From: Sinohyriopsis cumingii
Taxonomy: Eukaryota; Mollusca; Bivalvia; Unionida; Unionidae
Direction of reading: 5' to 3'
Assembly: GCA_028554795.2 (NCBI GenBank)
Contig: CM068829.1
Span: forward strand, 137,771,579 to 137,835,578
DNA length: 64,000 nucleotides
Of this stretch, positions 45,101 through 61,390 are shown piece after piece. A program made the position numbers and the translations under genes. Under the pieces are notes generated by a model. It made no database searches. It was given only the letters and a program-made list of their open reading frames with translations, and was not told the DNA's origin. Each line of letters opens with the position of its first letter. The stretch's first letter is position 1.

Positions 45101-46387
45101 AAGAAATGTCTGCATCAATCTTCAAATCATCTTGCACCACTAATACTTTAAACACAGATTAATCAACTGATTATGTGAAACTGAGTGGAGTATGAGTGCT
45201 GTTGTGTGTTGTTAAATTTCAAAGTGAACCTTTAAATCAGATAAAAACATGAAAAGCAGTCCCTTATATAATGAAGCAAATCTGTAAAATATATAAACAT
45301 ACTATATCTAGCTGTGATCATTTGATCATATGACCAGTACTGTGTGTGTTCAAAATGCTGGCAGTTCAGTGTGATATTCTTTGGCTGTTCGTTCCAATTT
45401 TGAATTTGACTGCTAAGAAAGCAATACTCTAAAAACTGACTGAATTTGTAAGAATAATGTATCATCCAACAACAGCTTTCAATTAAAATGTTTTTTCAAT
45501 GTTAAATGAATTTCAAATGAACACAAGTTTCCAGAAAACCCCTCCTTATACCCTGTAATGGGAGATTTCAACAAGGCTTAACAAAAATCCATTAATCAAA
45601 ATCCCTACTGAGATTAGTCATGTGTGTTTCCAGTTTTCATGGCATTTTGGGAGTTTCCTTCTGGGTTTTTTGGGGGGTTGGGTTGGGTGGGGGGACATGG
45701 ACAAACTTTGCCTCTGATGTACCTGTAGCACCCAATTAAGATAAAAATGCACCCACCCCCTCCGAGGATTGGATATGTCATTATGGCATATGAAAAAGAT
45801 TGTTTACTGCAACATGACAACCCCTTGTAAAAACCGAAATCTATTTTGCTTCGGTAGTTAGCATAAACCAATCAGAATAATTCAAAGTTATTTAGTAGTT
45901 CTCAAGTTTGACAATCAGAACCAATCAATCAATATATGAAAATATGCATTACTAGTCCAATAATCACACACACACTCGATCTGTGTTGATACTAATGGAT
46001 GAAAATCAACATCATCACGAGTGAAGGACAGATTCATCGGCCTAATGCATTACCAGAAGCAACATCGATCTCGGCTGGTAAACAAACACCATAGAAAGCG
46101 CTAATGGGTACGTGAGGGTCGGAAAACTGCTTAGGTTTATTTTCAGTATTTTCAACTTTAATTGTATTTTCTTCCGCTACTGTTTTGTTTTCGTCCTCTG
46201 TAACGGTTTCTTCTTTCTTCCTTTCTTCTCCACTGCATGTCGACAGGAATATTAATCTTGCCAGTCTTTTATCGAAAATTGACCTTGTCGTTTGAGTTAT
46301 GGGTCCCACATTTACTCCGAAGTCATCTAACTTCTGTCTCAATACTTCAACACTCAGCTTTCTAACGTCATTCAAAACGTCATCCAT
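2993..46387 (-). CDS. ANKLE2: ANKLE2, ankyrin repeat and LEM domain protein 2 (11 exons)
   Basis: The join of 11 exons (listed separately) gives 2643 coding bases and 880 residues, close to the roughly 900 residues usual in the family. Domains in order: LEM domain (about 5-45), viroplasmin/RNase H1 N-terminal-like domain (about 112-150), two ankyrin repeats (about 230-325), a conserved central region rich in Pro/Trp (355-475), a low-complexity acidic/Ser-rich linker (475-760) and a conserved C-terminal block (775-820). All junctions have GT/AG and phases agree throughout. In animals ANKLE2 sits at the ER/nuclear envelope and controls BAF (BANF1) phosphorylation through VRK1 and PP2A, allowing envelope reassembly after mitosis. 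The usual N-terminal membrane segment is not encoded in exon 1, so an upstream exon may exist. The start ATG has A at -3. Confidence 0.95.
3172..3243. repeat. 36-bp tandem duplication of the exon 11 acceptor
   Basis: TTTGCCATCTGAGAAAAACA and ATTATCCTGTGTATA occur twice in tandem, so the last intron has two identical 3' splice sites 36 bases apart. Confidence 0.93.
3438..4410. repeat. 27-bp satellite, about 36 copies, two unit variants
   Basis: Units are GATCTACCAGTCCA followed by either TTATATGATGGCA or TAATTTGGTGGCA. The two variants alternate irregularly. The flanks (CTGGTTCT, CTGTGCAGTCTGCAGCTGGA) are arms of a dispersed element also present at 10.53 and 19.5 kb. Long ORFs on both strands are not genes. 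Confidence 0.95.
4728..5300. repeat. 75-bp tandem repeat
   Basis: About 7-8 units with ACACTTCAGGCTATACTGTA and TTTAAGACCAAATTAAA. Alternating subtypes suggest a higher-order two-unit repeat. Confidence 0.92.
5711..5844. repeat. foldback with about 31-bp arms inside the MULE element
   Basis: GTCTTCTTTACAATTTAACT with TGTGGATCAA on the left is mirrored by TTGATCCACACAGTTATATT and GTAAAGAAGAC on the right. Confidence 0.88.
6043..6505 (+). pseudogene. MULE transposase C-terminal fragment
   Basis: Reads MTTLVNYWEDTYTGRQRRGR, FALQLWNIRDRVINNLPHKN and, after a stop at 6264 and a frame change, FQQTVDCHHPSVFKLTEYFR and LQSLVLTYGTAPLEDYL. This matches the tail found after the FLYWCH/MULE transposase domain in invertebrate proteins. 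The catalytic DDE part is missing. Confidence 0.75.
7159..7290 (-). CDS. ANKLE2: ANKLE2 exon 10
   Basis: 132 bases. Encodes PKPTQEDQDVLRALGCTPVQ, FERYPNIFHWRINLLRF and KDSSFR, the conserved C-terminal block of ANKLE2. Acceptor TTCTAG|GCCAAA, donor TTCAG|GTATGT, phase 2. Confidence 0.95.
7520..8800. repeat. 71-bp minisatellite with degenerate left part
   Basis: Units include CTTCATTACAAGGTGATATA and CATGGACATCATTATAATGA. Units at 8.2-8.7 kb are near-identical; 7.5-8.1 kb is older. Confidence 0.92.
9120..10200. mobile_element. older relative of the 11.55-12.66 kb element
   Basis: About 900 bp align with 11.58-12.53 kb, including ACTATTTACAACATCTACAA and ATTCTGCTTTCCTATTCAAC. The left end CCACATAGCCGCCAAACCC is a drifted version of the same terminus. 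Interior ORF fragments (9272-9628) are decayed. Confidence 0.7.
10530..10702. repeat. foldback (MITE-like) element
   Basis: Arms CCAACTGCAAACTGCACAGA and TCTGTGCAGTTTGCAGTTGG are exact inverses and enclose AGATCTACC-type sequence related to the 27-bp satellite unit at 3.4-4.4 kb. Confidence 0.85.
11000..12720. repeat. 22-bp minisatellite plus older 20-bp-type units
   Basis: 11000-11160 has CCTACCAAATTTCATTATG-type units. 11160-11552 has 22-bp CTACCTATGGATACAAACAG-type units. The array resumes at 12660-12720 after an insertion. ORFs in three frames are artefacts. Confidence 0.9.
11553..12660. mobile_element. hAT-like inverted-repeat element inside the 22-bp array
   Basis: The ends CCATAGCTGCCAA and TTGGCAGCTATGG are inverted. 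The array unit continues on both sides with a shared GATA. The interior carries minus-strand remnants: a zinc-finger-like stretch (FTLCKLCNVISLLDMEVPMK at 12026-12262) and a second fragment at 11613-11894, both paralogous to pieces at 9.27-9.96 kb. Confidence 0.75.
13970..14166. mobile_element. Tigger-type terminal fragment
   Basis: Contains GAGACCACCTGTCTTGAGAG and the end GACAGGTTCTACTG, matching the termini of the 23563-25353 element. The other end is not found. Confidence 0.7.
14340..14515 (+). mobile_element. possible third tRNA-like SINE family
   Basis: CACAGTGGTTGGCATGCTAG resembles box A and GGTCCAGGATCGAGACC resembles box B. It ends in an AAACCAAACCAAATC tail. Single copy here, so the family is unproven. 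Confidence 0.5.
14582..15550 (-). CDS. ANKLE2: ANKLE2 exon 9 (largest)
   Basis: 969 bases. Starts with the conserved DIAHEMKVPWTEYWYFLGAF and LDLLETYLKKK helix region. About 250 residues of acidic, Ser/Asp-rich linker follow, probably disordered and a phosphorylation target, then KELKLAKVTFLHG. Acceptor TTTACAG|GGACA, donor CATGG|GTAAGT, phase 2. Confidence 0.94.
15620..16370. repeat. 42-bp minisatellite
   Basis: Units containing CACAGTATGTATCATGTTAG and CTGCCCTCAATATTATATAC. Open frames on both strands are periodicity artefacts. Confidence 0.94.
17001..17249 (-). mobile_element. SINE family A, copy 2 (oldest-looking)
   Basis: More diverged than the other copies. The short duplication AAGTCAAA flanks it at 16993-17000 and 17250-17257. 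Confidence 0.8.
19144..19259 (-). CDS. ANKLE2: ANKLE2 exon 8
   Basis: 116 bases. Encodes AAVFHKSWTIPPSGSPEKKQ and RGDSEKGLERIGR, the conserved Trp/Pro stretch. Acceptor TTATAG|GCTGC, donor GGAAG|GTAAGT, phase 2. Confidence 0.94.
19505..19650. repeat. dispersed element related to the 27-bp satellite locus
   Basis: CTGGTTCTATGCAGTTTGTT through GAACAAACATAGACCCTAAT matches the reverse complement of the sequence flanking the 3.4-kb satellite. GTGCAGTTGGAGTC matches the arm of the foldback at 10.53 kb. Confidence 0.7.
19817..20711. mobile_element. non-autonomous relative of the 31.3 kb hAT-like element
   Basis: The ends CATACATGCCAACC and GGTTGGCATGTATG match the 31257-33173 element, and so does the subterminal AAAAGC(A/G)TAA motif. 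Interior ORFs match nothing. Confidence 0.72.
20974..21218 (-). mobile_element. SINE family A, copy 3
   Basis: A perfect 13-bp target duplication, ACTCAACTCCAAG, lies at 20961-20973 and 21219-21231. The (GTT)n tail on the left and tRNA-like head on the right show minus orientation. Confidence 0.9.
21566..21741 (-). CDS. ANKLE2: ANKLE2 exon 7
   Basis: 176 bases. Encodes QMYVPLIRSEDNTAPPMIGQ, then PWSPDG and the conserved KDPPLAVKACAGPMSPSK block of the central ANKLE2 region. Acceptor GTGCAG|GTCAG, donor AAAG|GTTGTT. Confidence 0.94.
21742..22783 (-). other. ANKLE2 intron 6
   Basis: Unique AT-rich sequence; no repeat array or gene recognised. Confidence 0.75.
22784..22850 (-). CDS. ANKLE2: ANKLE2 exon 6 (small)
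   Basis: 67 bases, found by phase and homology. Encodes VICARCQSASKETKELIAEL and LK. Acceptor ATTAAAG|GTGATA, donor GAAAG|GTTAGT, ending in phase 1. Families show a short helix here that ends the ankyrin block. Confidence 0.9.
23058..23368 (-). mobile_element. tRNA-derived SINE, family B, longest copy
   Basis: The minus strand begins with a tRNA-like head, GGTGGCCTAGTGGTTAGAG (box A) and GTGGGTTCGATCCCCGG (box B). The body follows, then an AAATC plus CA-rich tail. Related copies are at 33555 and 39514. Confidence 0.86.
23563..25353 (-). mobile_element. Tigger/pogo-type element, internally deleted
   Basis: The ends CAGTAAAACCTGTTATGAG and its near-exact inverse at 25353 form inverted repeats, flanked by TA target sites (23561-23562 and 25354-25355). 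The repeat CTCATAACAGGTGGTCTCTC-like motif recurs in both termini. It contains only the N-terminal DNA-binding part of a transposase. Confidence 0.85.
23958..24330 (-). pseudogene. Tigger-type transposase N-terminus (CENP-B-like HTH)
   Basis: Minus-strand frame ending at a TAG at 23958. It shows a pogo/CENP-B first helix-turn-helix (TLEERINVIERNEKGETTRK and VGKTQVQNVIKDK), then the start of the second DNA-binding domain (NEQVWEWFCVARSKNIPVSG). The DDE catalytic domain is absent, so the element cannot mobilise itself. Confidence 0.8.
25520..26410. repeat. 24-bp minisatellite
   Basis: Units of the type TACTGAATGGTTCATGTCTA plus TTTA, about 30 or more copies, decaying towards the right. Long ORFs on both strands are due to the 24-bp period. 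Confidence 0.95.
26685..27887. mobile_element. non-autonomous Tc1/mariner-Tigger type element
   Basis: The ends are inverted repeats (CAGTGGTCCCCCTCTTGAA on the left, TTAAGAGGGAGACCACTG on the right) flanked by TA at 26683-26684 and 27888-27889. The 1.2-kb interior has no recognisable transposase. Confidence 0.82.
28395..28570. repeat. short tandem array of about 32 bp
   Basis: About five units with CAAACTGTCATGTGGCAATA, ending just before exon 5. Confidence 0.88.
28597..28719 (-). CDS. ANKLE2: ANKLE2 exon 5: second ankyrin repeat
   Basis: 123 bases, phase 0. Encodes ETPLHFACKFGHIQVVEVLI, a canonical ankyrin repeat, followed by KNKYGETPFE. Acceptor TTTTTTAG|AACTG, donor GAG|GTAAGG. Confidence 0.95.
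29020..29590. repeat. 27-bp minisatellite
   Basis: About 20 units with the core GGGTAAATAAGTGTAGTGAT. Outer units are degenerate and central ones nearly uniform. Confidence 0.93.
31080..31256. repeat. 37-bp minisatellite, left part
   Basis: Units contain AAAAGGCACACACAGACCAC and TAGTCCAATATGTGTACC. It continues at 33174 after the hAT-like insertion. Confidence 0.9.
31402..32501 (-). pseudogene. hAT-like transposase fragments
   Basis: 32115-32501 encodes an N-terminal C2-H2-type zinc finger (HCSLCGNDFNIGHGGKF with following His residues). 31764-31973 is a middle fragment. 31402-31635 resembles the C-terminal hAT dimerisation region (VFHHSNADCERLFRIVNKNK, then EFRSRLSN). These pieces lie in different frames, with most of the catalytic core missing. 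The zinc-finger part carries an inverted duplication (32281-32364). Confidence 0.65.
32281..32364. repeat. near-perfect inverted repeat, 39-bp arms
   Basis: Arms at 32281-32319 and 32326-32364 differ at two positions and are separated by 6 bases. It lies within the transposase zinc-finger ORF and keeps the frame open. Confidence 0.92.
33174..33510. repeat. 37-bp minisatellite, right part
   Basis: Continues the array at 31080-31256, with units such as ACCACTAGTCCAATATGTGT and AAAATGCACAC. The array was split by the hAT-like element. Confidence 0.9.
33555..33716 (-). mobile_element. SINE family B, head-deleted copy
   Basis: Matches the 23.07 kb copy through ACATGTAGCATGATGTCCCA and CTAACACTAACCTCTTAATG but lacks the tRNA-like head. 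A (GT)n tail lies at its left end. Confidence 0.78.
33830..34079 (-). mobile_element. SINE family A, copy 4
   Basis: Same head and body as the other A copies. The flanks TTAATTTGGTATT and TTATTTGGTATT are an imperfect target duplication. The (GTT)n tail is on the left. Confidence 0.85.
34365..34690. repeat. 23-bp minisatellite
   Basis: Units of the form ACAGTACAACCTATGTCACA plus CTG; the array ends about 60 bp from the exon 4 donor. Confidence 0.9.
34755..34949 (-). CDS. ANKLE2: ANKLE2 exon 4: first ankyrin repeat
   Basis: 195 bases, phase 0. Encodes the first ankyrin repeat (YTAMHLAAMKNQPEMCQLIL) and the family linker RINFLVDLYLNMPDKG. Acceptor TTCCAG|GAAGG, donor GGG|GTCAGT. Confidence 0.94.
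36395..36720. repeat. 43-bp minisatellite
   Basis: About 7-8 units containing ATCCAGCCTTAAGACATCTG and GGAATAAGACAAAGTAT. Confidence 0.93.
37400..37870. repeat. degenerate minisatellite of about 45 bp
   Basis: Recurring ACCAATGCCCAAGCTGACCA and CTCTGCCCTGATACC pieces. The units vary in length and have drifted. Confidence 0.8.
38476..38661 (-). CDS. ANKLE2: ANKLE2 exon 3
   Basis: 186 bases, phase 0 at both ends. Encodes the helix-rich lead-in to the ankyrin repeats, with VQDILQLKKIIESGDCRLF and NPRYLVSSGDTPVIFQ, both typical of the family. Acceptor CAATAG|AACAAT, donor CAG|GTGAGT. Confidence 0.93.
38928..39126. repeat. 48-bp minisatellite, 4 near-identical copies
   Basis: Units contain ATTAGATGGGAATGCATCTC and AATGGACATTTCCCCACACA. 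Copies are almost identical, so the array is recent. Open frames on both strands follow from the 48-bp period. Confidence 0.93.
39240..39513. repeat. 37-bp minisatellite
   Basis: Tandem units built from AATACAGCCTTAATCATATC and TACATTTAGTGTTTATT. The SINE-B copy starts exactly where the array ends. Confidence 0.85.
39514..39812 (+). mobile_element. tRNA-derived SINE, family B, 5'-truncated copy
   Basis: Starts inside the tRNA-like head (TTAGAGCGTCCACC), with box B GTGGGTTCAATCCCCGG. The body matches the 23.07 kb and 33.6 kb copies in reverse (TGTCAGGATAATGTGACTGG, GGGACATCATGCTA) and ends in an AAATC(AC)n tail. Confidence 0.82.
40271..41037 (-). pseudogene. decayed LTR-retrotransposon gag-like ORF
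   Basis: A Met start at 41037 begins MSLKVEIFLSDPTQEQLDLF. A charged coiled coil rich in Lys/Glu/Arg follows, then a SCAN-like gag block with LAKNIRLVLPFREKEVDNYF near 40450. This arrangement is typical of gag proteins of Gypsy-type elements of invertebrates. It is broken: an in-frame TAA lies near codon 27, at least one frameshift lies near 40810, and the Lys/Glu stretch again changes frame. No pol, LTR or primer-binding site was found nearby, so it is a fragment. Confidence 0.7.
42191..42348 (-). CDS. ANKLE2: ANKLE2 exon 2: viroplasmin-like domain
   Basis: Encodes RNLVFTDKAEALSMAKKYSG and ARFKVFKTQKDAEEF, the RNase H1 N-terminal/viroplasmin-type fold typical of ANKLE2. Acceptor TTTTTTCAG|GT and donor CACAG|GTAAAA; 158 bases, leaving phase 0. 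Confidence 0.93.
42349..46053 (-). other. ANKLE2 intron 1
   Basis: Holds the 36-bp minisatellite at 43170-43872. The rest (43.9-46.0 kb) is AT-rich unique sequence with G-rich tracts near 45660-45700 and no recognisable gene. Confidence 0.8.
43170..43872. repeat. 36-bp minisatellite, about 19 copies
   Basis: The unit contains AACTAGTGTGGCCATTGCAT then GTTTAAACATTCTATT. Because 36 is a multiple of 3, both strands keep long open frames (237 and 242 codons). These are artefacts of periodicity, not genes. Confidence 0.95.
46054..46387 (-). CDS. ANKLE2: ANKLE2 exon 1: LEM domain
   Basis: Begins MDDVLNDVRKLSVEVLRQKL and encodes the LEM fold that binds BAF, including the family motif GPITQTTRSIFDKRLARL. 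An acidic Glu/Lys-rich stretch follows, then the conserved ISAFYGVCLP motif near the exon end. The donor after 46054 is CTG|GTAATG, phase 1. The reading frame also continues a short way into the intron. Confidence 0.93.
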
Positions 46388-47547
46388 TATTTAAATAAAC
46401 TTAAAACTGCACCAAAGTCATTAAGAAAATACTCGAAATAACGTCATCGCATCGATCGTCGAGACATCTAGTTCCGCCTGTTATAAATCCGCCTAACACC
46501 AAACAGACATCGACATGACACTTGTTCTCATTGGTCGAACTAAATATCATAAACTAATGCAAATACATCTTACATACTTTGTGTGTAGCTAAGAAATGTA
46601 CCGGAAACCGAAACCCATGAGGAAAGAATATTATCTCCAAATATTTCCAGGTAACTGAATTGAAGAAGGATCACCGATGACCCGACACAATCCAACATAA
46701 ATATAAGTTTTTGTCATTAATTACGAGAAAGTGGAAAGATTTATGAGTACACATATATTAAATGTGACGATGAAAAAGCTGCTTTTTGTCAGCATTTTTA
46801 ATTGTTTTCGAATGACCAACAAAAATAAATAACAAAAGATATTAACAGGGACGTAGGCAGTTGAATAACTCGTGAAGAACACCGACTCAGTGATATATTT
46901 CCACCAAACTGAAGAAATAAAACAAACTGTAATTATAAAGAACATAGATTTTGTAACCTGTATAATCTAAATATAGTTTAACAAAAGCATTACACGATAT
47001 TGTTGTACCCAATAGATCTTCATATAACTACAAATAGTTGACTATGACATAAAAACCAGTTGATTAAAGGGTAAAATTTCGTGTTTAAATAATTAGCAAA
47101 AAGGAAGACAAGATTGTTCATATTTTGTGTGGATCTATATCCAGTAAAGGGATCTGAGGGCATAAAAATCAGTCTTTAACAATCATTTGACCAGCCAGAC
47201 ATGAGAGTATTACTTTATAATTCCAAATTTGTATTATGAAAAAAAAAAAAAACTATACCAGTCATACCAATACGGTTTGTCTATTTTACATTATTTTACA
47301 CGTCGTAAATAATGGTACAACGCTAGACTGTATTGAATTCAATAATTTTCAGAGAGACGATATAAACATTTTACCAGTTTAACACGACTCCAACAGTGTA
47401 GATATCAGTAGAAAGTGCCTATTTGTTTGCAAGTTTCCAAGGGATTAAAAGTGTGATCCAAGACAGATGTGTTCAAACATGGTTGTGTCGAAGACATCCT
47501 CCAGCCATAAGGTGTGTTACATATCTAGGTGCATAGTGAATGACAGT
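46388..47547 (-). promoter_or_regulatory. ANKLE2 upstream region
   Basis: Sequence between the ANKLE2 ATG and the presumed left end of the Maverick element. It must hold the ANKLE2 promoter unless an upstream exon lies further out. I see no clear TATA box and no other gene. Confidence 0.45.
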
Positions 47548-47830: not shown

Positions 47831-47926
47831 ACAGAGACAGACAACAGACAAGAGACAAACACTTATACAACATTTTTGTTACAAAATTGGAAGCAAGAAA
47901 GTAATTTCTTTTCGAGGCACATGAGT

Positions 47927-47942
47927 GGCCCTGAAAAGGGCC
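47927..47942 (-). promoter_or_regulatory. histone-type 3' stem-loop C (perfect)
   Basis: Minus strand GGCCCTTTTCAGGGCC: a 6-bp stem and a TTTC loop, identical to the metazoan histone mRNA consensus. It is preceded by ACAAA and followed by ACTCA, as in histone genes. A purine-rich element CGAAAAGAAATT (47903-47914) lies 12 bases further, where U7 snRNA would pair. It follows the stop at 48008 by 66 bases. Confidence 0.88.
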
Positions 47943-48007
47943 TTTGTGTTCTTCTTCTTCTTCTATTTTCTCCAGTTCTTCAGCCATCTTCTAATTTTTC
48001 CTAATAT

Positions 48008-48558
48008 TCATTTTATCTTCTTCTTTATCTCTGACTCTGATATCCAGTTAGGACGGCCTATGGCTCTGAATTTCTCCTGTATCCTTATCCATTTATTGTT
48101 GAGTTTCTTAAATCTTTCTTTTGTCTTTCTATTCTCTTCTTCTTTCCTTTCCTTTGACCACTTTTCTTTTATCTTCTTCACTTCTTCTGTCAGCACTTTC
48201 CTCATCAGTTCCTCTGCTTTCATGAGTTGGTCTAAACCCCACTTCACAGAAAATGACACTCACTCCATTCCAAGATATCTTCTAGGAAGAACCTGACTCT
48301 CGTGACATGATCCAGGGCTTCCTTCAAGCTAACTACTCTCACATACTGAGGGCCAATGAATCTTCTTAATTTTTTACTTCCTCTTCTATCATGCCCTGGA
48401 GAAGATCCATGGCTACTTTGAGACTGGTTCACTTGTATTGTCACAAAATCCTTGGTAAGTTGATACCTCCTATCCTTCTGAAGCCTATCCACTACGTATG
48501 TCCCATCCACTATCCAATACCAAGAGTCATTTAGTTCACTGAACAGTTGTATGCTCAT
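48008..48558 (-). CDS. left-arm gene C, coiled-coil protein with histone-type 3' end
   Basis: ATG at 48558, 24 bases below an initiator-like motif. The first frame (48244-48558) begins MSIQLFSELNDSWYWIVDGT and includes a basic segment (RGSKKLRRFIGPQYVR). It ends overlapping by 16 bases a second frame (48008-48259) that is a Lys/Glu-rich coiled coil (MRKVLTEEVKKIKEKWSKER, IRIQEKFRAIGRPNW). Either one gene broken by a frameshift or two overlapping ORFs. No known family recognised. It resembles genes A and B in its charged helix and in its 3' signal. Confidence 0.6.
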
Positions 48559-48581
48559 CTTCTTTGCTTATTCCTAGAATG

Positions 48582-48643
48582 GTGCGAATGACGAACGCTT
48601 TGAGTTTTTATGTGAAAAGCACAGACGTGAAGGAAAACATCCC
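48582..48643 (-). promoter_or_regulatory. promoter of gene C with shared 27-nt module
   Basis: Minus strand: GGGATGTTTTCCTTCACGTC... (module 48617-48643), then TATA-like CATAAAAA (48605-48612), then about 19 bases to GTCATTC. The module is identical at 25 of 27 positions to the one at 51112-51138 and at 22 of 27 to the one at 51858-51884. Confidence 0.75.
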
Positions 48644-48657
48644 CTACTTCTCTTTTC

Positions 48658-49041
48658 ACATTTAACCTACTATCCACACAGAGGTGAGGAGACAAACAAC
48701 TAACAACAAATCTACTGTCCACATACGGTAAGAATCATAACAAACACAAAATATACTATCCACACACGCGAAGAAGCAAAAACAAACCCAGTTATACTAT
48801 CCACACACGCGAAGAAGCAAAACAAAACCATAATCTACTATCCACACAGAAGGGAAGGTTTAGTAACCTCACACTCTACCATCCACACAAGCCTACGCGA
48901 GAGCTTTCAAACCCCAATAATCTACTATCCACTCAAACGTACGTGAGCTCTCACAAACCCCAATAATCTACTATCCACACAAACGTACGTGAGCTCTTAC
49001 AAACCCTAATAATCTACTATCCATACAAACGTACGTGAGCT

Positions 49042-49082
<41 letters not shown>
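48658..49082. repeat. 47-bp tandem repeat and (AC)n between genes B and C
   Basis: Units contain AATCTACTATCCACACAAAC and GTACGTGAGCTC. The right-hand units are nearly identical and the left ones diverged. The array is capped by an (AC)n microsatellite at 49044-49082. Confidence 0.88.
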
Positions 49083-49084
<2 letters not shown>

Positions 49085-49161
49085 ACATTAGTAAACGAGT
49101 GAGTGTTTATATTCACACTACTCCACACTCATATAAATTGACAACTTGAATAGTCTCTTTT

Positions 49162-49695
49162 CTAGAGATTGGTTAGCCCTGAGAAGGGCTGCTTTTTTTT
49201 GTTGTAAACTCCAGATGCACCTGGATCATGGTGACATCTCCCAGGTCTGGCATCACAGACACAACGGCGACTCCAATCATTCTCCCAGTTTATAGTTGTT
49301 ATTGGGAGTGCTGAGAGAGGTTGACTCGCTTCACTATCCCAGTCTTCACTTTCAGGGATAGTGAAGACTTCCCTCCTTCTCCTATTCTGCACACGTGGAT
49401 GTTGTCTGACCTCTATTTGTTGGACGACAGGTCTCTGTGCTGGTTGTGTCGGTGGTGCTGGAAGTGGTTGTGGAGGATTCCTCATCATGGGTGTAACTTT
49501 ACAGTTCTGTCTCATCATAGGGTGAGACAGGATCGTTTGTTTCCTTTCCTTCTCCTCTTCCTTATTCCTTTTATCCTCTTCTTCTTTACTTCTAACTTCC
49601 TCTATAAAAGACTCTGCTGCTAGCTCATTCAGGAATCGCCTGGCATACTCCAGGCACATTTGGAGTTCCAAAAGTTTCGCTATTCTGGTACTCAT
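49162..49695 (-). CDS. left-arm gene B, charged helix plus Pro-rich protein
   Basis: ATG at 49695: MSTRIAKLLELQMCLEYARR, then a Glu/Lys/Arg coiled coil, a Pro/Gln-rich middle, an NRRRREVFTIPESEDWDSEA segment and a Cys/His/Arg-rich end. The frame reads through stem-loop B before stopping, so the original stop was probably lost just upstream of it. The first eight residues match gene A (M-x-x-R-I/L-A-K-L). Family unknown. A TATA-like TATAATCC and an AGTCTGGCTACC initiator lie 20-75 bases upstream. Confidence 0.55.
   Translation of the reverse strand: MSTRIAKLLELQMCLEYARRFLNELAAESFIEEVRSKEEEDKRNKEEEKERKQTILSHPMMRQNCKVTPMMRNPPQPLPAPPTQPAQRPVVQQIEVRQHPRVQNRRRREVFTIPESEDWDSEASQPLSALPITTINWENDWSRRCVCDARPGRCHHDPGASGVYNKKKQPFSGLTNL
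49175..49190 (-). promoter_or_regulatory. histone-type 3' stem-loop B
   Basis: Minus strand AGCCCTTCTCAGGGCT: a perfect 6-bp stem with a TCTC loop (consensus UHUH), followed by AACCA and, 9 bases on, CTAGAAAAGAG (within 49155-49166), which fits a histone downstream element able to pair with U7 snRNA CUCUUUU. Confidence 0.82.
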
Positions 49696-49715
49696 CGTTT
49701 TGCTGTTAACGAATC

Positions 49716-49775
49716 AACAGGGGTAGCCAGACTTGTTGTTGTTGCGTTGGATTATAGTGGTGTTCACTCGCATTG
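49716..49775 (-). promoter_or_regulatory. core promoter of gene B
   Basis: CACTATAATCC, then 23 bases to AGTCTGGCTACC. The same 12-mer occurs at the matching place below the 51.1-kb TATA box. The 27-nt module is not seen here. Confidence 0.5.
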
Positions 49776-49822
49776 AGCATTTACCACTGGTTAATGGTGC
49801 CACAGGCACCTTTTTAATTACT

Positions 49823-50112
49823 CCTGGGGGAAGGAATGGTGCCACATCCCCCAGGCTTTAATGTACTCACAGAGTACTTTTTGATTCTAGCCGTTAGGTT
49901 GTAGGACTATTTGTCCCTAACAACCTAAATGTAAGGCTCTTACATGAGTGGGAACAGTGAAAGCACGCACTCATGTTAGTAAAGTTGGACTGAACTGCCC
50001 CAGGTGTCAACCCAAGCAGCATGTAACGCCCGCTGCGATTGGTCAGCAGCGATGACGTCACATTAGGACACCTGGTCGTGTGGCAAGTGGAAATCGTTCC
50101 ACATCTTGCCAC
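49823..50112. other. two hairpins upstream of gene B
   Basis: CCTGGGGGA / TCCCCCAGG (49823-49855) and a 33-nt imperfect palindrome, GTGGCAAG...CTTGCCAC, with an inner TGGAA/TTCCA pair (50080-50112). TGACGTCA (CRE) lies at about 50053. ORFs on both strands in 49.9-50.3 kb match nothing. Confidence 0.55.
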
Positions 50113-50509
50113 GTGTACGATATCCGAGCGTGGTAAAGGAGGAAAAGGCACTCGGCAAGCCAGCCATGGATGTTGTGTACTTCCTGAAACGCTAGCCCGT
50201 ACTTATTTCAAATTAAGTCCAGTTTTACTAGTAGACAATAAAAATACCAATAATGTGTAAGCCACCTCTGCAATTAATCAAATTGAAAATTTAGCAATTT
50301 TGAATAAATTTTAACGAACAAGTTAGAATTTAGTGTACAAAGTGTACATAAAATATGAAATAAGAACCAATCAGTGAAGTCTAAACGACTTATACCAGTT
50401 TGAGTCACGCATGGTTTAAAATTGAGTATAAGAATTTGGACGGCGGTACCAAAACAAGTCAAATTATGTAAGTTATGAAATAGATATTATCAAATTGGTT
50501 CTCTAGCCA

Positions 50510-51140
50510 AAATGAGAACCCAACATTCAACCAGACAATTTGATACCTTGCTCGACCTTTTCAAATCGAGTTTAGGAACGTCACCAGGTCCGGTTTGGTC
50601 TCCACTGAATATTTGATCAGCTCCGACATTTTCCGGCATCAGCGTTATTACTGTGCTAATCCGCAAGTTTCTGGTTTTCCGTTGTGTTGAACGGTTGAGA
50701 AGGCTGGGTCGTTCGGTTACCGTGGGCTGCAGGCTCCGTGTAAATGGTCGCGCCCCCTTTTATGATTATTTGATGCTGGTTAGTCACGGCCCACGTGCCG
50801 CAGCAAAGTCCACTCCTTACTCCCTCCTTTTCTCTAAATTTCCTAGTAACGAGCGGTCCGGTTTAGTTACGGTGTCTTTAGTGATGGTGTCGTTCTGTCT
50901 TCCAGTATACTCCATGCTGCAATGCCCTTTGTGCTGCAAGTTGAATTTTCTGTGTCTAGCGGCACGGTGGTAGGCTGCACTGCACTGCTTCGTAGCACGT
51001 GGTCGGTTGCCTTGCACTGCTCACGATGTTCACCGCTCGACGTTCCCTGGTTGAATGAGAATGAATGTGAGTGAGGTAGCCAGACTGCCGAGCGTTCCGT
51101 ATATATCACCCAAGCACGCACGTGAAGGAAAACATCCCAT
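50510..51140 (-). promoter_or_regulatory. two tandem promoter-leader units (D and E)
   Basis: Unit D: 27-nt module at 51112-51138, TATA (GATATATAC, 51099-51107), then AGTCTGGCTACC and a short ORF starting at MEYTGRQNDTITKDTVTKPD. Unit E: CATAAAAGGGGGCGCG near 50760, then a leader whose CCAAACCGGACC...TTGAAAAGG part aligns with D's CTAAACCGGACC...TAGAGAAAAGG. A GT donor-like AAG|GTATCA follows at about 50550. Whether these drive gene B through splicing is unknown. Confidence 0.45.
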
Positions 51141-51392
51141 GACACCAAAAACTTACATTGCCCTTATTATCCCCAAAGACGCGTGGACTTAAAAAAAAAA
51201 ACACTCACTCACCTTTTTTACTGACAATCACTCATTTTAAATTTTTGACAAGCTACGGAAACGAAGGATTTATAGCCACACTTTCTAACTAAGATAAAGA
51301 AATAATGTACTTATAAACGCACTACTATTATTTGCAAATGACTAACATACCATTGGCAATTGAATGAATATTTCTTTTCTAGAGTATTGGGT

Positions 51393-51408
51393 AGCTCTGA
51401 AAAGGGCT
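51393..51408 (-). promoter_or_regulatory. histone-type 3' stem-loop A
   Basis: Minus strand AGCCCTTTTCAGAGCT: histone loop TTTC, a stem with one C-A mismatch, followed by exactly ACCCA and then CTAGAAAAGAAA (51371-51382). It sits 32 bases after the gene A stop, the spacing typical of histone mRNAs. Confidence 0.82.
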
Positions 51409-51440
51409 GTTTTTTGTGGACGAGGAGTGATAGCAATCTT

Positions 51441-51794
51441 TTATGATCTAACATTACGACCTCGTCTGGCGGCAGGCTTTCCCACATGATAGGGTCTGCT
51501 TCTTCGGAAAGAGAAGGAGAACTCTTTCGTATCGACACGGCAGTCGATAAAACCTCTTTCAGGTTCCTGTTGCTGTTGCTGTTGCTGCTCTCTCTACTGT
51601 TTCTCAAGTCTGTACTTCTCTGTCCATTCTTCTTTGTCCCTGTTAATTTCCTCCCTGAAGAGCTATTCTATCATGTCTTCAGTGACTTTTAACATTCTGA
51701 CATTATCTATCTCTTCAGGCTTCGGTATCAGGCTTTGCCTGACACGATGCAAATTAACGTAACCTTCGTTCAGCTTGGCTAATCTTGAGCGCAT
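51441..51794 (-). CDS. left-arm gene A, small basic coiled-coil protein
   Basis: ATG at 51794: MRSRLAKLNEGYVNLHRVRQ, an acidic/basic helix (EEINRDKEEWTEKYRLEKQ), a Gln run, then an Arg-rich tail ending KPAARRGRNVRS. About 117 codons with two in-frame TAG codons (near codons 44 and 67), so probably a pseudogene in this copy. No family recognised. The start resembles gene B. It lies downstream of the protease gene in the same direction. Confidence 0.6.
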
Positions 51795-51821: not shown

Positions 51822-51884
51822 ATGGTGAGACTGGTGACTACCCAGCTTTTATTGTTAAAGCGCGGACGCGATCGAAAACATCCC
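51822..51884 (-). promoter_or_regulatory. promoter of gene A
   Basis: 27-nt module (51858-51884; ends GAAAACATCCC on plus), TATA box CAATAAAAG (51845-51853), then 20 bases to CAGTCTCACC, an initiator-like start about 30 bases above the ATG. Confidence 0.7.
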
Positions 51885-52100: not shown

Positions 52101-52658
52101 CTATTTTGGACAAGGTTGACAACGTTGTGAATTAAATTGAGATTTCCACTGTTGGAAGTCATTGGGCCATTGATGTACACTACATTTCCTAGCTAGAGAC
52201 AAAAGATAGCCACAATGGTCACAAAACCATCGATCTACTTTCTCATCGTTTCTTGAACAATGACGATCGAAATAAGTCACTAAATGTTCTAAAGAATATC
52301 CCAGACTGCGTTGATGCAGAAAATACACACAATATTGTCCACACACCAATGAATCTGTGCCTTGTAATTTCACATTATTGAATCGTGTTGTCTGAGCATT
52401 TCTTCTCATAAAGTCAATGATATCGTCTTCCAAAGGGGGCAATCCATATGAATCAAAATACTCCACACATCCTTCCTGAGGAAAGTAGACAGCTACCCAG
52501 TGGGTTCCTAGGAGATGACTGTTGTCTGTGTTGATTACATAAGCTTGATGGTCTTGAGGTTTGCGATGAGGTAGTTCAACTTTAGCCCACACGACATGAT
52601 TCCAAGAAGCAGTGTACGAACTGTGGTTCAATAGGTAATAAAGTTCCTATGTATCCAT
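52101..52658 (-). pseudogene. Polinton PRO, adenain-like cysteine protease
   Basis: Ulp1/adenain-type protease that would process capsid precursors. Visible: catalytic His in GTHWVAVYF, acidic residue in EYFDSYGLPP, the Gln of LQGTDSLVCGQYCVYF and the catalytic Cys in CGQYC. Length about 185 residues, as in the family. ATG at 52658; the fourth codon is TAG, otherwise the frame is open. It follows the Cys-containing gene by 34 bases, and genes run MCP - Cys protein - PRO as in other Polintons. Confidence 0.88.
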
Positions 52659-52692: not shown

Positions 52693-53148
52693 TCACATGT
52701 GATGATAAGTGATCACTTCGATCTTGACTTTCTCTTTGAATTTGTCTGACAAGTAACCGTTTCTTCGTTTTGTCTCTGTACTCTGAGCCAAGAGAGCTTC
52801 GATGTGATAGATCTCTAGAGTTAATGGAGGACAAGAATGTTCACGCAAGTCTTTATACCACTGATGCAACACGGCTTCTTCCGAGATGAGACTCCAAGCT
52901 TCGTCCAGATACTAGTCCAATTTTTCTTCTTGACTCAGCATCAGACATTTATCGAGTTGAATTTAACTGGGATGATCGTTTTGACATCCATAGCAATCTT
53001 TCTTGACCAATTTCGTAATTTTTTCTGCCAAGTGTTTGGCAAAACAGGAGACTAAATACTGTTCTTGTTCTGGCCATCTGAACTGTATCACGATGTCCTT
53101 TTCGTCTTTGTCTTGGGGTTCTCATTTCACAGGTTCCTCACATTCCAT
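52693..53148 (-). pseudogene. conserved Polinton Cys-containing small protein
   Basis: ATG at 53148 overlaps the MCP stop by about 10 bases. Shows FAKHLAEKITKLVKKDCYGC followed by QNDHPS, a Cys-Gly-Cys/His-Pro-Ser pattern I recognise from uncharacterised Polinton ORFs located beside the capsid gene. It may bind zinc or be virion-associated; the function is unknown. Three in-frame stops (near codons 9, 60 and 77). Confidence 0.6.
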
Positions 53149-54397
53149 GTCCAAAGATGAATTTAACTGCCTCATGTAGAACTGTAGCAAACTGAAGTTC
53201 CACTCGAATCTGGCCTGATGTTATAGGGTGGAAATGTCCCTCGTCGCTCCCTTGGTCTGGAGCGAAATCAAAAGCCCAAAAAGCGTAGCCTCCTGCATAA
53301 TCCTCGTACGTAATACCATGACTGGTATTGGTCCCTAACTGTCCCGTGGCTTCGTACAGGGATAAGTACGACCTCAAGTAATTCATCTTGGCACTAAAGT
53401 CAGGTTCGAAAGGTCTGGTACACAAGGTCTTGCCATCTCGACTGACTTCAATCTTGGATATATCGTAGTGCTTAAACTGGAAAGGATTTTGATTGTGGAC
53501 TCCGCTGAAGGCTGCATTGCTCACGATACCAATGATTAATCACTTGGGTGACTGTACATGGAACAGATAATCTTCGATCTAGGATCGGAGTCCAGTGGCT
53601 ATGGTGAAAATTTTCACTTCCACTCGTCGTATCGGATAATTAGCGGTTGTTCTGCTGAAAGTGTGACTAATGTCGTTTCCCATTTTAGGTAACACTTCCA
53701 CACGTCGTACGTAGAGTTTGGATTCCTCGATGTAGGTTTTGTAATCATTTGCACCAGCCATCAAATGGAAAGTGGTACTGCTGCGATTCAGTTTCAGGCG
53801 AATATCTACACCGTTCTGCAAATACTTCTCTTGTAACCACTTGTCCAAATGCAAGCGACCAATCAGTTTTACACTTCGGCTTCCAGGAATTTTCTTTTGA
53901 CGTGCGTCAAATCCCTTATTGGTACAATCTTTATCTGCCACCTCATCGAACTTGCCCGCTGTGTCAAGTTTCCGTACCACACAAGCATCCAGATGAGTGT
54001 TTTTGGCTTCTTTTCCGTACGTCAAGAGATTGTCCAGGTACGCTAGATAAGGGTAAGTATCCATGCTGATGCTGACCAGTTTGTTATTCAAGTGCAAGTC
54101 CACTTCGCGGAACAAGGAATGCATGAAATTGTTGACAGGAGCTACTGGCTTATCGGCATATACATCGCTACCATCCTTATCGTTCACTTTGACTTTCAAA
54201 TACAAGTAACTACTGTTCAGATCAATGTAATATTAGGGCTGTCCTTTGATTTCAAACTCGATTGGAACTGAAGCTGTCAAAGAGGAGATGGGATGAAATT
54301 CGACCCATTGGGATTCTTGCATTGCCATCATGGTGAGTTGCATGGCAAACAGATCCAGTTCCGACATGGAACAGGCGCAAGATTCTCGGTGCATCAT
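53138..54397 (-). pseudogene. Polinton major capsid protein (double jelly-roll type)
   Basis: 420 codons in one uninterrupted frame apart from three stops: TAA near 54233, TAG near 53580 and TGA near 53538. It matches the Polinton capsid family often annotated in animals as F54H12.2-like. Motifs: LDLFAMQLTMMAMQESQWVE at the N-terminus, MHSLFREVDLHLNNKLVSIS, LHLDKWLQEKYLQNGVDIRL and GYAFWAFDFAPDQG near the C-terminus. It would form the hexon-like shell. It lies immediately after the penton/VI-like ORF (15-base gap). Confidence 0.85.
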
Positions 54398-54412
54398 TTC
54401 TGTTTCTAATAT

Positions 54413-57126: not shown

Positions 57127-57194
57127 TAGCTCGTTAGTAATGTCGAAGAACTCTTTGCAGCTCGAACTTTCGATGATCTTAGAAGTGTAGTGGA

Positions 57195-57833
57195 CACATC
57201 GGAGTACACAAAGATCAAATTGAGTCCTCCGTTCAGTTCTACCGGGTTTCCAAAAGCCCTGTAAAAATCATTGTTACTGTTGATCTTGGGGCTCAAATTT
57301 TGTGTTACCAACTATGGATGTCCACCCAAAAATAAACTACCATTAAACCTGAGGGACAATGTGTCCGTATCCTGAAATTTGATCATGAGTCGACGAGCAG
57401 CTTTATGGTACTGAATCTTAACAATCCTTTTGGCTCTGTTCAGGCCTTTGCCAAAGGCTAAGTCGAACCTGTCCGCAATAGTGTCCACCAAATGTTCACT
57501 ACTAAAATAATAACCTGAAGGAATTTTCTATGTGCTGATACTGAAGGATGGATTGCTTGCTGGTCTTGTGTCCCCTGAAAACCCGAATTTATTTATTTCT
57601 TCTTGCAATTGGGCATTTAGGATTTCAACGTGGAAAGTGTTTTGGTTTTCAGTGATATTTTTTATTTGTGTCGGATGAATGATTTCTAACAAAGCCACTT
57701 CCCAATGGGCTTCTTGATCTAATTAGATGGCCTGAGGTAATTTGGCCGTGTAACAGCACACATTGTAGTTGGGAAACACCTCCAATGAACTGTCACTTTG
57801 TATGATTAAGTAAAATTGGTTGTTACTGTTCAT
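57195..57833 (-). pseudogene. Polinton penton-like minor capsid protein (PX), 5' part
   Basis: ATG at 57833 (MNSNNQFYLIIQSDSSLEVF, PNYNVCCYTAKLP), then HWEVALLEIIHP, the canonical start of the single jelly-roll penton protein. Stops: TAA (codon 37), TAG (codon 102) and TAG (codon 173). The frame ends in GLNLIFVYSDV where the LINE is inserted; the gene resumes at 54937. Confidence 0.82.
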
Positions 57834-58244: not shown

Positions 58245-59354
58245 TTACTTCAATTTATAGTCGATGACTTGCGAAGCGTCGATCCAAGAATCAAAACTGG
58301 GAGAATGTCCTTTCCAACGCACTTTGACTTCTTTGACACGTCGTTTTCCAACTTTACAGGTTCTTCGTTCGAGAATACTTTTGATGTCGTACACGTCGTC
58401 TTCTTTCTTGGTGACACGTGGTAACTCGGGTAAGTAAAACGTTCCTTTTAACACTTCTCCGTTTATATCTTCCAATTTATAGACGGCAGGATGACGACCA
58501 TGCTCTCGTCCAGTGACACGAAACAATTCTGTGGTCCAGTTGGGTAAGTAACCTTTGTCGAAAGTGCGTTTGGTTTTGCCAATGCGCACCCAATCTCCTA
58601 CGGCCAACACATCACCTTTCTTGGGGACAGCCACCGTCGTGGCCGTACCAAACAGACGATCAGAAACCAGCACTTCGTTGTCGGGAGTCACATCTTGGGG
58701 CGCACATCCAATGCTTCGATGGTAAGACTGGTTGTACGCTTGAACCAGGTGCGGTAAGATGTCGATGTAATTGAGAGTGTGGTGATGCGTGAAATATTTC
58801 CACATGCGTTCTTTCAAAGTGCGTTGAAAACGTTCCACAATGCTGGTCTTGGTTTCAGGATTCTCGGTGGTGAAAAAATGAATGTCACCTTTCTTTAATT
58901 CTTTTTGGAAAGCTTGGTGGAGAAATTCGGTGCCTTTGTCAGTTTGCCATCGAAGAGGGTGACGACCGCTTTGTTTCAACACCCGTTGCAGGGCTCTCAC
59001 TAACTCGCTGCTCGATTTGGAAGTCAATGGCACGACCCAGGCAAATTTGGAAAAGACGTAAAAGAGACAAAACAAACATTTGTATCCGCGATTGTAGGTG
59101 GCCAAATGAGAGACATCGGCTAAATCGGCTTGCCATTGATGATCGATGCCTCCCACTTGGTTGCGACTTCTGGAAAACTTTCGTCGAACGGGTTTGTATA
59201 AAGTGTATGTAGCTCGTTCTTGTAACCATCGTTGCACTTGAGGTAAACGGAGACTTTTCAGTCAAGTTTTGGCAGCACGATACAATTTCTGAACTCCTCC
59301 GTAACCTGCAGGATGGGATGGATCGTAGTAAATGCTGGCTAACACCTTCTCCAT
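58245..59354 (-). pseudogene. Polinton integrase (INT) with chromodomain
   Basis: 370 codons from ATG at 59354, with one in-frame TGA near 59262. DDE core: Asp in QWQADLADVSHL, Asp in RWQTDKGTEFLHQAF, Glu in TSIVERFQRTLKERMW (D,D-35-E type). An SH3-like region (VGDWVRIGKTKRTFDKGY) follows, then a C-terminal chromodomain (VYDIKSILERR, VRWKGHSPSFDSWIDASQVI). It would insert the element with a 6-bp target duplication. It lacks an obvious zinc-binding N-terminus, which may be replaced by the GYGGVQKLYRAAKT leader. Confidence 0.92.
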
Positions 59355-60870: not shown

Positions 60871-61390
60871 CTTTCTTGCGCGTAGAAGCTGTTTTCTGAG
60901 GGCTTTACTTTGTTGAAACAAATTTTGAGTAATGTAAATGACACTGGCATTACGATGATGCCATTTGCGCGTAAACCATAGTTTAATTTCTTCTTCGTCT
61001 TCTCCTAACATGTCGTCGAAAATGACCGGATGGGTTTGACTGGGGTCAGACACGATTCCGTCGCCTTCGTTAGGAATGCCTTCCACAAACATGATGGAAT
61101 CGCCTTGCCTTTCTCGCAAGAGGCTGTACGCCGATTGCCACTCTTTGTAACATCAAACGATTCGTTGAGGTGGACGATCGATCAAATGATGTTTATGTTC
61201 CATCAAACGTTTGACAAATTCGGTTTTGCCTGAACCGATAAGTCCGGCAATTAGCATGTTAAAGGGATGGCGAAGATACAAAGCCTACCAACTGGCACGA
61301 TCTATGTGTTCGTCGATGACTTTGAAAGTGGAGGAAGAGGGATCAGAGACAGTAGTGCAAGGAAAGTCACTTGTGACACGAACACAGACA
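60814..61390 (-). pseudogene. Polinton packaging ATPase (FtsK/HerA-A32 type)
   Basis: Genome-packaging motor. Walker A in MLIAGLIGSGKTEFVKRL, Walker B in HPVIFDDMLGEDEEEIKLWF, then the sensor strand NASVIYITQNLFQQSKALRK. Breaks: a TAG before Walker A and a TGA between A and B. After SKALRK the usual C-terminal 80-100 residues are replaced by an unrelated Arg-rich frame, indicating a deletion. TATA box GTATAAAAGC near 61398-61407. Confidence 0.82.

What the first reader, a model, noticed from the sequence alone, without database searches (positions are those of the whole stretch)
47903..51408. Histone mRNA 3' stem-loops at the ends of three genes in a Polinton arm
Three 16-nt minus-strand hairpins (47927-47942, 49175-49190, 51393-51408) fit the metazoan histone 3' stem-loop: 6-bp stem, UHUH loop (TTTC, TCTC, TTTC), A-rich 5' side, ACTCA/AACCA/ACCCA 3' side. 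Each is followed 9-13 bases later by a purine-rich C(G/A)AAAAGA element in the position of the U7-binding histone downstream element. Two sit 32 and 66 bases after an ORF stop; the third overlaps an ORF whose stop seems lost. None of these ORFs is a histone. If functional, a virus-like element makes non-polyadenylated, SLBP-bound, S-phase-linked mRNAs for one gene set. I know of no such report for Polintons; novelty is my inference.
Basis: partly seen in the sequence, partly recalled or inferred. Interest (0 to 1): 0.93.

Follow-up and report, generated by a model that had tools for sequence, protein, structure and literature searches.

The report
Histone-style RNA ends on Polinton genes
A virus-like jumping element (a Polinton) in a large animal genome ends several of its small accessory genes with the kind of hairpin and downstream signal that the host uses for histone genes, which suggests that the element taps the host's DNA-replication-linked, tail-less messenger RNA pathway.

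Summary
The three minus-strand hairpins are histone 3' stem-loops: RF00032 scores 34.1 (gathering 34), 23.8 and 22.2 bits, its only matches at E<=2 in 64 kb. The window's Polinton is a decayed copy. In the 2.9-Gb host genome the search scored 75 RF00032 matches, all above gathering. I read 68; all 68 lie behind non-histone genes of related elements. The family has at least five such genes: ORF3, ORF2 and ORF1 in tandem behind the protease, and a divergent pair (ORF4, ORF5) at the other end. Stems start 15-36 nt after the stop (80 ends). ORF4 stem-loops stay about 97% identical where fourfold sites fall to about 51%. The two host histone genes examined (H3, H2B) have the same stem and the same GAAAAGA element at the same distance, but other flanks. 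The protease is followed instead by AATAAA in 5 of 7 copies examined. Best reading: SLBP/U7-processed mRNAs without poly(A). No RNA was examined. Searches of an open-access library listed no such report for Polintons.

The parts
51393..51408 (-). histone-type stem-loop behind ORF3 (SL3; one C.A mismatch)
   Evidence: RF00032 23.8 bits, below gathering; sequence; fold
51373..51379 (-). GAAAAGA, histone-downstream-element-like, 13 nt after SL3
   Evidence: same element and distance in host H3 and H2B genes
49175..49190 (-). histone-type stem-loop behind ORF2 (SL2)
   Evidence: RF00032 22.2 bits, below gathering; fold -9.0 kcal/mol
49156..49162 (-). GAAAAGA element 12 nt after SL2
47927..47942 (-). 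histone-type stem-loop behind ORF1 (SL1)
   Evidence: RF00032 34.1 bits, above gathering; fold -11.4 kcal/mol
47907..47913 (-). GAAAAGA element 13 nt after SL1
51441..51794 (-). ORF3, small charged protein, no Pfam match; two in-frame stops in this copy
   Evidence: relatives
49162..49695 (-). ORF2, C-terminal CVCxARPGRC motif; own stop lost in this copy, homologues end at 49228
   Evidence: structure of a homologue
48008..48558 (-). ORF1, coiled-coil-like (by eye); disrupted in this copy (two frames)
   Evidence: relatives
51858..51882 (-). shared promoter-like motif upstream of ORF3, then ATAAAA box
   Evidence: three matches (<=5 mismatches) in the window, both strands
51112..51136 (-). shared promoter-like motif of ORF2, then ATATA box; separated from ORF2 by an insert
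48617..48641 (-). shared promoter-like motif upstream of ORF1, then ATAAAA box
   Evidence: motif with <=2 mismatches in 17 of 48 fetched loci
49733..51074 (-). insert between ORF2 promoter and start codon, bounded by GTCTGGCTACC duplications (51075-51085 and 49722-49732)
   Evidence: in other copies promoter and ORF2 are close together
47532..47540 (-). probable element terminus (TTCACTATG; TTCACTACT in relatives)
52101..52646 (-). adenain-like protease
   Evidence: 37 homologues, motif alignment, in nine relative loci too; Pfam Peptidase_C5 only 14.8 bits, below its cut-off
53138..54403 (-). major capsid protein (interrupted)
   Evidence: 40% / 33% to the ORFs beside the protease in L003 / L001; name from gene order, no Pfam or PDB match
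58245..59348 (-). integrase, rve plus chromodomain
   Evidence: Pfam rve 37.8 bits, chromo 22.6 bits below its cut-off; 47% to L003 integrase
60874..61272 (-). packaging ATPase fragment
   Evidence: 41% to L003 ATPase

Best explanation
The window holds a decayed Polinton (adintovirus-class) whose relatives in the same host genome carry at least five small non-histone genes, each ending in a histone-type 3' processing signal: a 6-bp stem with UUUC loop and usually ACCCA behind it, then GAAAAGA about 13 nt downstream, the stem starting 15-36 nt after the stop. SHOWN: the signals, their places, their conservation across divergent copies, and that the stem, the downstream element and its distance are those of the host's H3 and H2B genes. 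INFERRED: in S phase SLBP binds the hairpin, U7 snRNP pairs with the downstream element, CPSF73 cuts between them, and the mRNA is exported and translated without poly(A) and decays when DNA synthesis stops. The element thereby ties its accessory (perhaps regulatory or early) proteins to host DNA replication, while the protease end keeps a poly(A) signal.
For: RF00032 in the window; zero in 60 shuffles. 75 scored genome matches pass gathering; the 68 read lie behind ORF1, ORF4 or ORF5 by peptide motif. Ends not chosen by score, window left out: ORF4 11/11, ORF5 21/24, ORF2 16/19, ORF3 8/11; of the 9 misses I judge 6 decayed hairpins and 3 spurious BLAST hits. AAAAGA at +14 after the stem in 97 and GAAAAGA at +13 in 86 of 106. 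ORF4 stem-loop identity is 96-99% in every divergence class, also where fourfold sites are about 51% identical. ORF4 dN/dS 0.10, ORF5 0.40. First stem pair G-C in 80 of 82 (ORF1/4/5), A-U in 23 of 24 (ORF2/3). Host H3 and H2B: same stem, AAAAGA at +14, stop-to-stem 28 and 34 nt. AATAAA 99-113 nt after the protease match in 5 of 7 copies examined, but at background after the stem-loops, 14/106 against 127/1080. Mechanism of such ends: PMC7614891 (passages); decay at the end of S phase is recalled.
Against: No transcript, cleavage site or SLBP binding was tested. The window's three genes are all broken, and two of its hairpins are below gathering. The flanks are not the host's: host H3 and H2B have AAC before and ACACA / ATACA behind the stem, the elements mostly AAA (AAC in ORF2/3) and ACCCA; the host 8-mer AGAAAAGA is exact at its place in only 30 of 106. 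Only two host histone genes, from one contig, were read. Human U7 (recalled) paired no better than shuffles; the host U7 search did not complete. Five more distant Polinton/adintovirus loci have no RF00032 match; they also show no ORF1-5 relative. The 75 matches were chosen by score and are not a full ranking: the host histone stem-loops read (35.9, 38.2 bits) are not among them. The 108 stem-loops were found with a consensus scan, so their uniformity is partly by choice.
Confidence: 0.85

Rival explanations
1. Dual ends: the hairpin is used in cycling cells, but the same genes also make poly(A) mRNAs from weak or unrecognised signals, as some histone genes do (recalled); the element is not strictly S-phase-bound.
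For: AATAAA occurs within 150 nt in 14 of 106 copies, so read-through to poly(A) is possible in some.
Against: That rate equals background, 127/1080 random stretches of the same loci.
Confidence: 0.2
2. The hairpin is read by an element-encoded or other factor (terminator, packaging or stability hairpin), not by SLBP and U7.
For: No binding data; the accessory proteins have no Pfam family above cut-off; the flanks differ from those of the two host histone genes read.
Against: Stem, U-rich loop, downstream element and its distance are those of the host's histone genes, and the ends score above RF00032 gathering.
Confidence: 0.08
3. The 3' ends are passive relics of one captured histone 3' UTR that was duplicated with the genes and has no function now.
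For: The five ends are alike and could share one origin.
Against: Stem-loop identity stays about 97% where ORF4 fourfold sites fall to about 51%, and the first base pair changed on both sides between gene types: selection rather than recent copying.
Confidence: 0.03
4. Chance: purine-rich, repeat-rich DNA throws up hairpins.
For: The window is rich in tandem repeats.
Against: Zero in 60 shuffles, and 68 of 68 genome matches read lie behind genes of one family.
Confidence: 0.003

Closest known systems
Replication-dependent histone mRNA 3' end (Rfam RF00032 with U7 histone downstream element)
   Same: Stem, U-rich loop, stop-to-stem distance, GAAAAGA element and its distance match the same genome's H3 and H2B genes; the ACCCA flank is that of other metazoan histone genes (recalled).
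   Different: Flanks differ from the two host histone genes read. The genes are not histones and lie in a virus-like element scattered over many contigs, not in the host's tandem histone arrays.
Polinton / adintovirus
   Same: Integrase with chromodomain, packaging ATPase, capsid protein and adenain-like protease in the order of L003; inverted terminal repeats ending TTCACTACT.
   Different: Accessory genes at both ends carry histone-type 3' ends. The term stem-loop does not occur in the one adintovirus survey checked by term search (PMC11071296), and five more distant loci lack RF00032 matches.
RF00032 hit reported in coronaviruses (PMC7786107, passages)
   Same: A viral genome with a listed match to the histone stem-loop family.
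   Different: There one match of 14.7 bits, far below gathering, inside the coding region of nsp3; here matches above gathering sit at fixed places behind stop codons, with the downstream element.
Viruses that act on histone mRNA supply (HTLV-1 Tax, PMC2276518, passages)
   Same: A virus meets the histone mRNA pathway.
   Different: There the virus lowers host histone transcripts; here the element's own genes carry the signal in cis.

Membership tests
RF00032 histone 3' stem-loop | Score at or above Rfam gathering (34 bits) | tested here: met
   Window: 1 of 3 (34.1; others 23.8 and 22.2). Host genome: 75 of 75 scored matches, 34.5-45.6 bits (only the best candidates are scored). In L021-L040: 34 RF00032 matches over gathering, 20 of them the chosen ones.
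RF00032 histone 3' stem-loop | 6-bp stem with 4-nt U-rich loop, A-rich 5' flank, ACCCA-type 3' flank | tested here: met
   106 stem-loops (found by a consensus scan): loop TTTC in 102, ACCCA in 87; AAA in 82 of 82 for ORF1/4/5, AAC in 18 of 24 for ORF2/3. Window SL3 has 5 of 6 pairs.
RF00032 histone 3' stem-loop | Histone downstream element at fixed spacing | tested here: met
   AAAAGA at +14 in 97 of 106; same offset in host H3 and H2B.
RF00032 histone 3' stem-loop | Pairing of the downstream element with host U7 snRNA | tested here: inconclusive
   Host U7 not obtained (search unanswered); human U7 from memory no better than shuffles.
RF00032 histone 3' stem-loop | Mature mRNA ends after the stem without poly(A) | not testable with these tools
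   No RNA data.
Replication-dependent histone gene | Encodes a histone | tested here: not met
   No Pfam family above its cut-off for the proteins behind the stem-loops: window pieces and one relative each of ORF2-ORF5 and two of ORF1.
Polinton / adintovirus | rve integrase with C-terminal chromodomain | tested here: met
   Window: rve 37.8 bits (cut-off 32.6), chromo 22.6 (cut-off 25.1, just below); relative L003: 50.1 and 33.8.
Polinton / adintovirus | Type B DNA polymerase | tested here: inconclusive
   Not found in the part of the element inside the window; present in L003 and a 34% match of 120 aa in L039, an ORF4 locus.
Polinton / adintovirus | Capsid protein and adenain-like protease in order | tested here: met
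   Capsid name from gene order; no Pfam or PDB match for L003's protein.
Polinton / adintovirus | Terminal inverted repeats | tested here: met
   Outward flanks of ORF4 and ORF1 match in inverted orientation in 593 of 612 pairs; TTCACTACT in 34 of 52 flanks. The window copy's far end lies outside the window.

The most novel reading that the evidence does not exclude
A Polinton family runs a regulon of at least five genes on the host's histone mRNA pathway: a shared promoter motif in one arm, a divergent pair at the other end, and histone-type 3' ends on all five, so that its accessory proteins are made only while the host replicates DNA. Every RF00032 match that I read in this genome's list (68 of the 75 scored; the list is not a full ranking) is element-borne, so the element could even compete for SLBP or U7 or visit histone locus bodies.
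Probability: 0.7. Interest if true: 0.93.

Novelty: new variant of a known kind. Interest (0 to 1): 0.9.

Why it matters
Metazoan replication-dependent histone mRNAs are the textbook protein-coding mRNAs that end in a stem-loop instead of poly(A). Here a virus-like element appears to have adopted that ending for a set of non-histone genes, with selection holding it in divergent copies. If true, it gives a direct cis mechanism by which an integrated DNA virus senses host S phase, makes the timing of Polinton gene expression testable, and warns that poly(A)-selected RNA-seq would miss these genes. It also offers natural non-histone mRNAs for asking what the histone ending does by itself.

Tried and rejected
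IMG/VR scans with capsid, protease, ORF2-alignment, protease-alignment and integrase-alignment queries, and one stem-loop pattern, found no relatives (pattern). A promoter-pattern scan gave two contigs, in which RF00032 has no match; I did not study them further. A canonical stem-loop pattern gave five contigs; RF00032 has no match in them, and in the four where the site lies in a listed ORF it falls inside the same small phage ORF, on the opposite strand (the fifth, L008, listed, has related neighbours). The phages collection gave nothing for the capsid piece. ORF1's N-terminal piece has no homologue in the protein database.

Five MAG-contaminant loci (L001-L005) gave gene order but no RF00032 match at E<=2 and no match to the ORF1-5 C-terminal pieces at E<=0.01, so they neither support nor refute.

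That ORF1, ORF2 and ORF3 are paralogues was tested with shuffles and is not established (best case 31 of 1000 shuffles reach the score, in K/E-rich stretches). Human U7 pairing gave no signal. A structure of an ORF2 homologue shows one confident helix (residues 3-52) and a mostly low-confidence rest; no fold search was run.

Papers: ten searches of an open-access library. In the titles and abstract starts listed (one search listed 20 of 29) I saw no report of histone-type ends on Polinton genes. PMC7786107 reports weak RF00032 hits in coronaviruses (passages). PMC11071296, PMC7614891, PMC2276518 and PMC12898040 were seen as passages only; PMC6350959 only as a listing. The original adintovirus paper is not held.

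Dropped rows: of 108 stem-loops two were left unassigned and dropped (n=106), one in L032 that looks like chance and one in L051 that is probably ORF1. In one search the ORF1 set was set aside because low-complexity hits swamp it (8 of 40 non-chosen ends had the stem-loop; 7 of 39 without the window). The poly(A) check after the protease used 7 of the 9 loci with a protease match; L037 and L056 have only fragments and were left out, and distances run from the end of the match.


Full report
What was checked. The finding claims three histone-type stem-loops at the ends of three genes in a Polinton arm. Rfam's histone 3' stem-loop model has exactly three matches at E<=2 in the 64-kb window, on the minus strand and at the stated places: 34.1 bits (47903-47947), 23.8 bits (51367-51413) and 22.2 bits (49150-49195), against a gathering score of 34. 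An independent scan for the metazoan consensus (recalled) plus pairing finds only these three; 60 dinucleotide shuffles of the window contain none. Two hairpins fold well (-11.4 and -9.0 kcal/mol, 0 of 200 shuffles as good); the third has a C.A mismatch and does not stand out (-2.1 kcal/mol, 33 of 200). GAAAAGA begins 12-13 nt after each stem.

The element. The minus strand from about 61.3 to 52.1 kb encodes, in order, a packaging ATPase fragment, an integrase with an rve and a weak chromodomain match, a penton-like and a major capsid protein (interrupted) and an adenain-like protease. The order matches L003, one of five relatives found in contigs filed under bacterial MAGs, which also has a Pfam-recognised type B polymerase. 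Behind the protease come ORF3, ORF2 and ORF1, then the probable terminus at 47540. Each of the three is preceded by the same 25-nt promoter-like motif and a TATA-like box; the motif occurs nowhere else in the window at up to 5 mismatches. It was derived from these three sites, but with up to 2 mismatches it recurs in 17 of the 48 fetched 3-6 kb loci, of which 18 have an ORF1-3 stem-loop. ORF2's promoter and start are split by an insert with 11-bp duplications.

Relatives in the host genome. Only 75 of 589,472 first-look candidates were scored, so this is not a census or a full ranking; the host histone stem-loops read later are not in it. I fetched DNA around 68 of the 75. By peptide motifs in the upstream reading frames, all 68 lie behind genes of this element family: 48 of 48 in the first set (ORF1 16, ORF4 23, ORF5 9) and 20 of 20 in the second, one of these by eye. 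Seven were not read.

Two arrangements appear. In one, ORF3, ORF2 and ORF1 follow the protease; a protease match lies in nine such loci. In the other, ORF4 (about 77 aa, arginine-rich) and ORF5 (about 185 aa) are divergent, with stem-loops 1.06-1.10 kb apart facing outward in 30 pairs; one ORF4 locus has a polymerase fragment (L039). The sequence outside ORF4's stem-loop matches that outside ORF1's in inverted orientation in 593 of 612 pairs, and TTCACTACT lies in 34 of 52 flanks. I read these as the terminal inverted repeats, so the stem-loop genes sit at both ends of the element. No Pfam family passes its cut-off for the five proteins.

Is it selection or recent copying? The matches were chosen by stem-loop score, so I counted gene ends that were not the chosen ones, leaving out the window: ORF4 11 of 11, ORF5 21 of 24, ORF2 16 of 19 and ORF3 8 of 11 carry the stem-loop; of the 9 misses I judge 6 to be decayed hairpins and 3 spurious low-identity BLAST hits. 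In 25 complete ORF4 copies, the 138 pairs whose fourfold-degenerate sites are on average 52% identical still have stem-loops 97.7% identical; for non-chosen copies alone (9 copies) the figures are 51% and 96.5% (20 pairs). ORF4 has median dN 0.107 and dS 1.03 (ratio 0.10); ORF5 0.041 and 0.101 (0.40). ORF1, 4 and 5 have G-C as first stem pair in 80 of 82, ORF2 and 3 have A-U in 23 of 24: one change on both sides. The stem starts 15-36 nt after the stop in the 80 gene ends with a recognisable C-terminus.

Is the downstream element the host's? When the genome search answered again, it showed histone genes in tandem arrays with a period near 8.3 kb. Two pieces of 401 bases from one contig cover the ends of H3 and H2B (named by me from their translated C-termini) and carry RF00032 matches of 35.9 and 38.2 bits. 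Their stems are GGCCCTTTTTAGGGCC and GGCCCTTTTCAGGGCC, the stop-to-stem distances 28 and 34 nt, and AAAAGA lies at +14 within AGAAAAGA. In the elements AAAAGA is at +14 in 97 of 106, GAAAAGA at +13 in 86 and the host's exact AGAAAAGA in 30. The flanks differ: host AAC before and ACACA or ATACA behind the stem; elements AAA in 82 of 82 (ORF1/4/5) or AAC in 18 of 24 (ORF2/3), and ACCCA in 87 of 106. So stem, downstream element and distance agree with this host's histone genes, while the ACCCA flank is closer to the general metazoan form (recalled). U7 itself was not obtained, and human U7 recalled from memory gave no signal.

Contrast with a core gene. AATAAA lies 99-113 nt after the end of the protease match in 5 of 7 copies examined (absent within 700 nt in L034, at 532 nt in L044). 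After the stem-loops AATAAA within 150 nt is at background (14 of 106 against 127 of 1080 random stretches). This suggests two classes of element transcripts, polyadenylated and histone-like.

How it probably works. As reviewed in PMC7614891 (passages), SLBP binds the stem-loop, U7 pairs with the downstream element, CPSF73 cuts, and SLBP supports export, translation and stability in S phase. The element's accessory genes have the cis parts this needs. The step from signals to processed RNA is inference. What the proteins do is unknown; ORF2 homologues have an N-terminal helix and a conserved C-terminal CxC..C motif, ORF4 is arginine-rich, and ORF5 has an acidic-aromatic stretch that could be an activation domain (by eye).

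Limits. No RNA data. The feature is not shown to be general in Polintons: five more distant loci lack RF00032 matches but also lack ORF1-5. Novelty rests on ten searches of an open-access library, which would miss subscription papers; the nearest thing seen is a weak, sub-threshold RF00032 hit inside a coronavirus coding region (PMC7786107, passages).

Noticed in passing
window 49733-51074 (-): Insert of about 1.34 kb between ORF2's promoter and start, flanked by 11-bp duplications and ending in a CAA-rich tail: probably a retrotransposed sequence.
   Followed up: partly
window 55138-57267 (-): Reverse-transcriptase-like ORF pieces (by eye, not tested against a library) between penton-like and core genes: probably a retroelement inserted in the Polinton.
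   Followed up: no
window 46034-46390 (-): Probable host exon with a LEM domain (Pfam 43.8 bits) beyond the element's end.
   Followed up: partly
window 48698-49050: Tandem repeats of 41 and 46 bp between ORF2's stem-loop and ORF1's promoter, with matches in L013, L016, L017 and L018: possible enhancer or origin.
   Followed up: no
several loci among L013-L053, about 66-70 nt upstream of ORF1's promoter motif: A second copy of the promoter motif, mostly ending GCGCGT and without a TATA-like box, recurs at a nearly fixed distance upstream.
   Followed up: no
L028 and L051: ORF1-type and ORF4/ORF5-type ends lie within 6 kb of each other, as if two elements sit end to end or nested.
   Followed up: no
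L041 and L045, beyond the element terminus: Integrase-like (L041, 24-30%; L045, 63%) and capsid-like (L045) matches lie outside the terminus next to ORF4's stem-loop: probably another element close by.
   Followed up: no
host genome, for example contig C531: Histone genes in tandem arrays with a period near 8.3 kb on many small contigs.
   Followed up: partly
window 43163-43999: Minisatellite of 36-bp units, open in both strands over about 250 codons.
   Followed up: no
window 51441-51794 (-): Both in-frame stops of the broken ORF3 are TAG.
   Followed up: no
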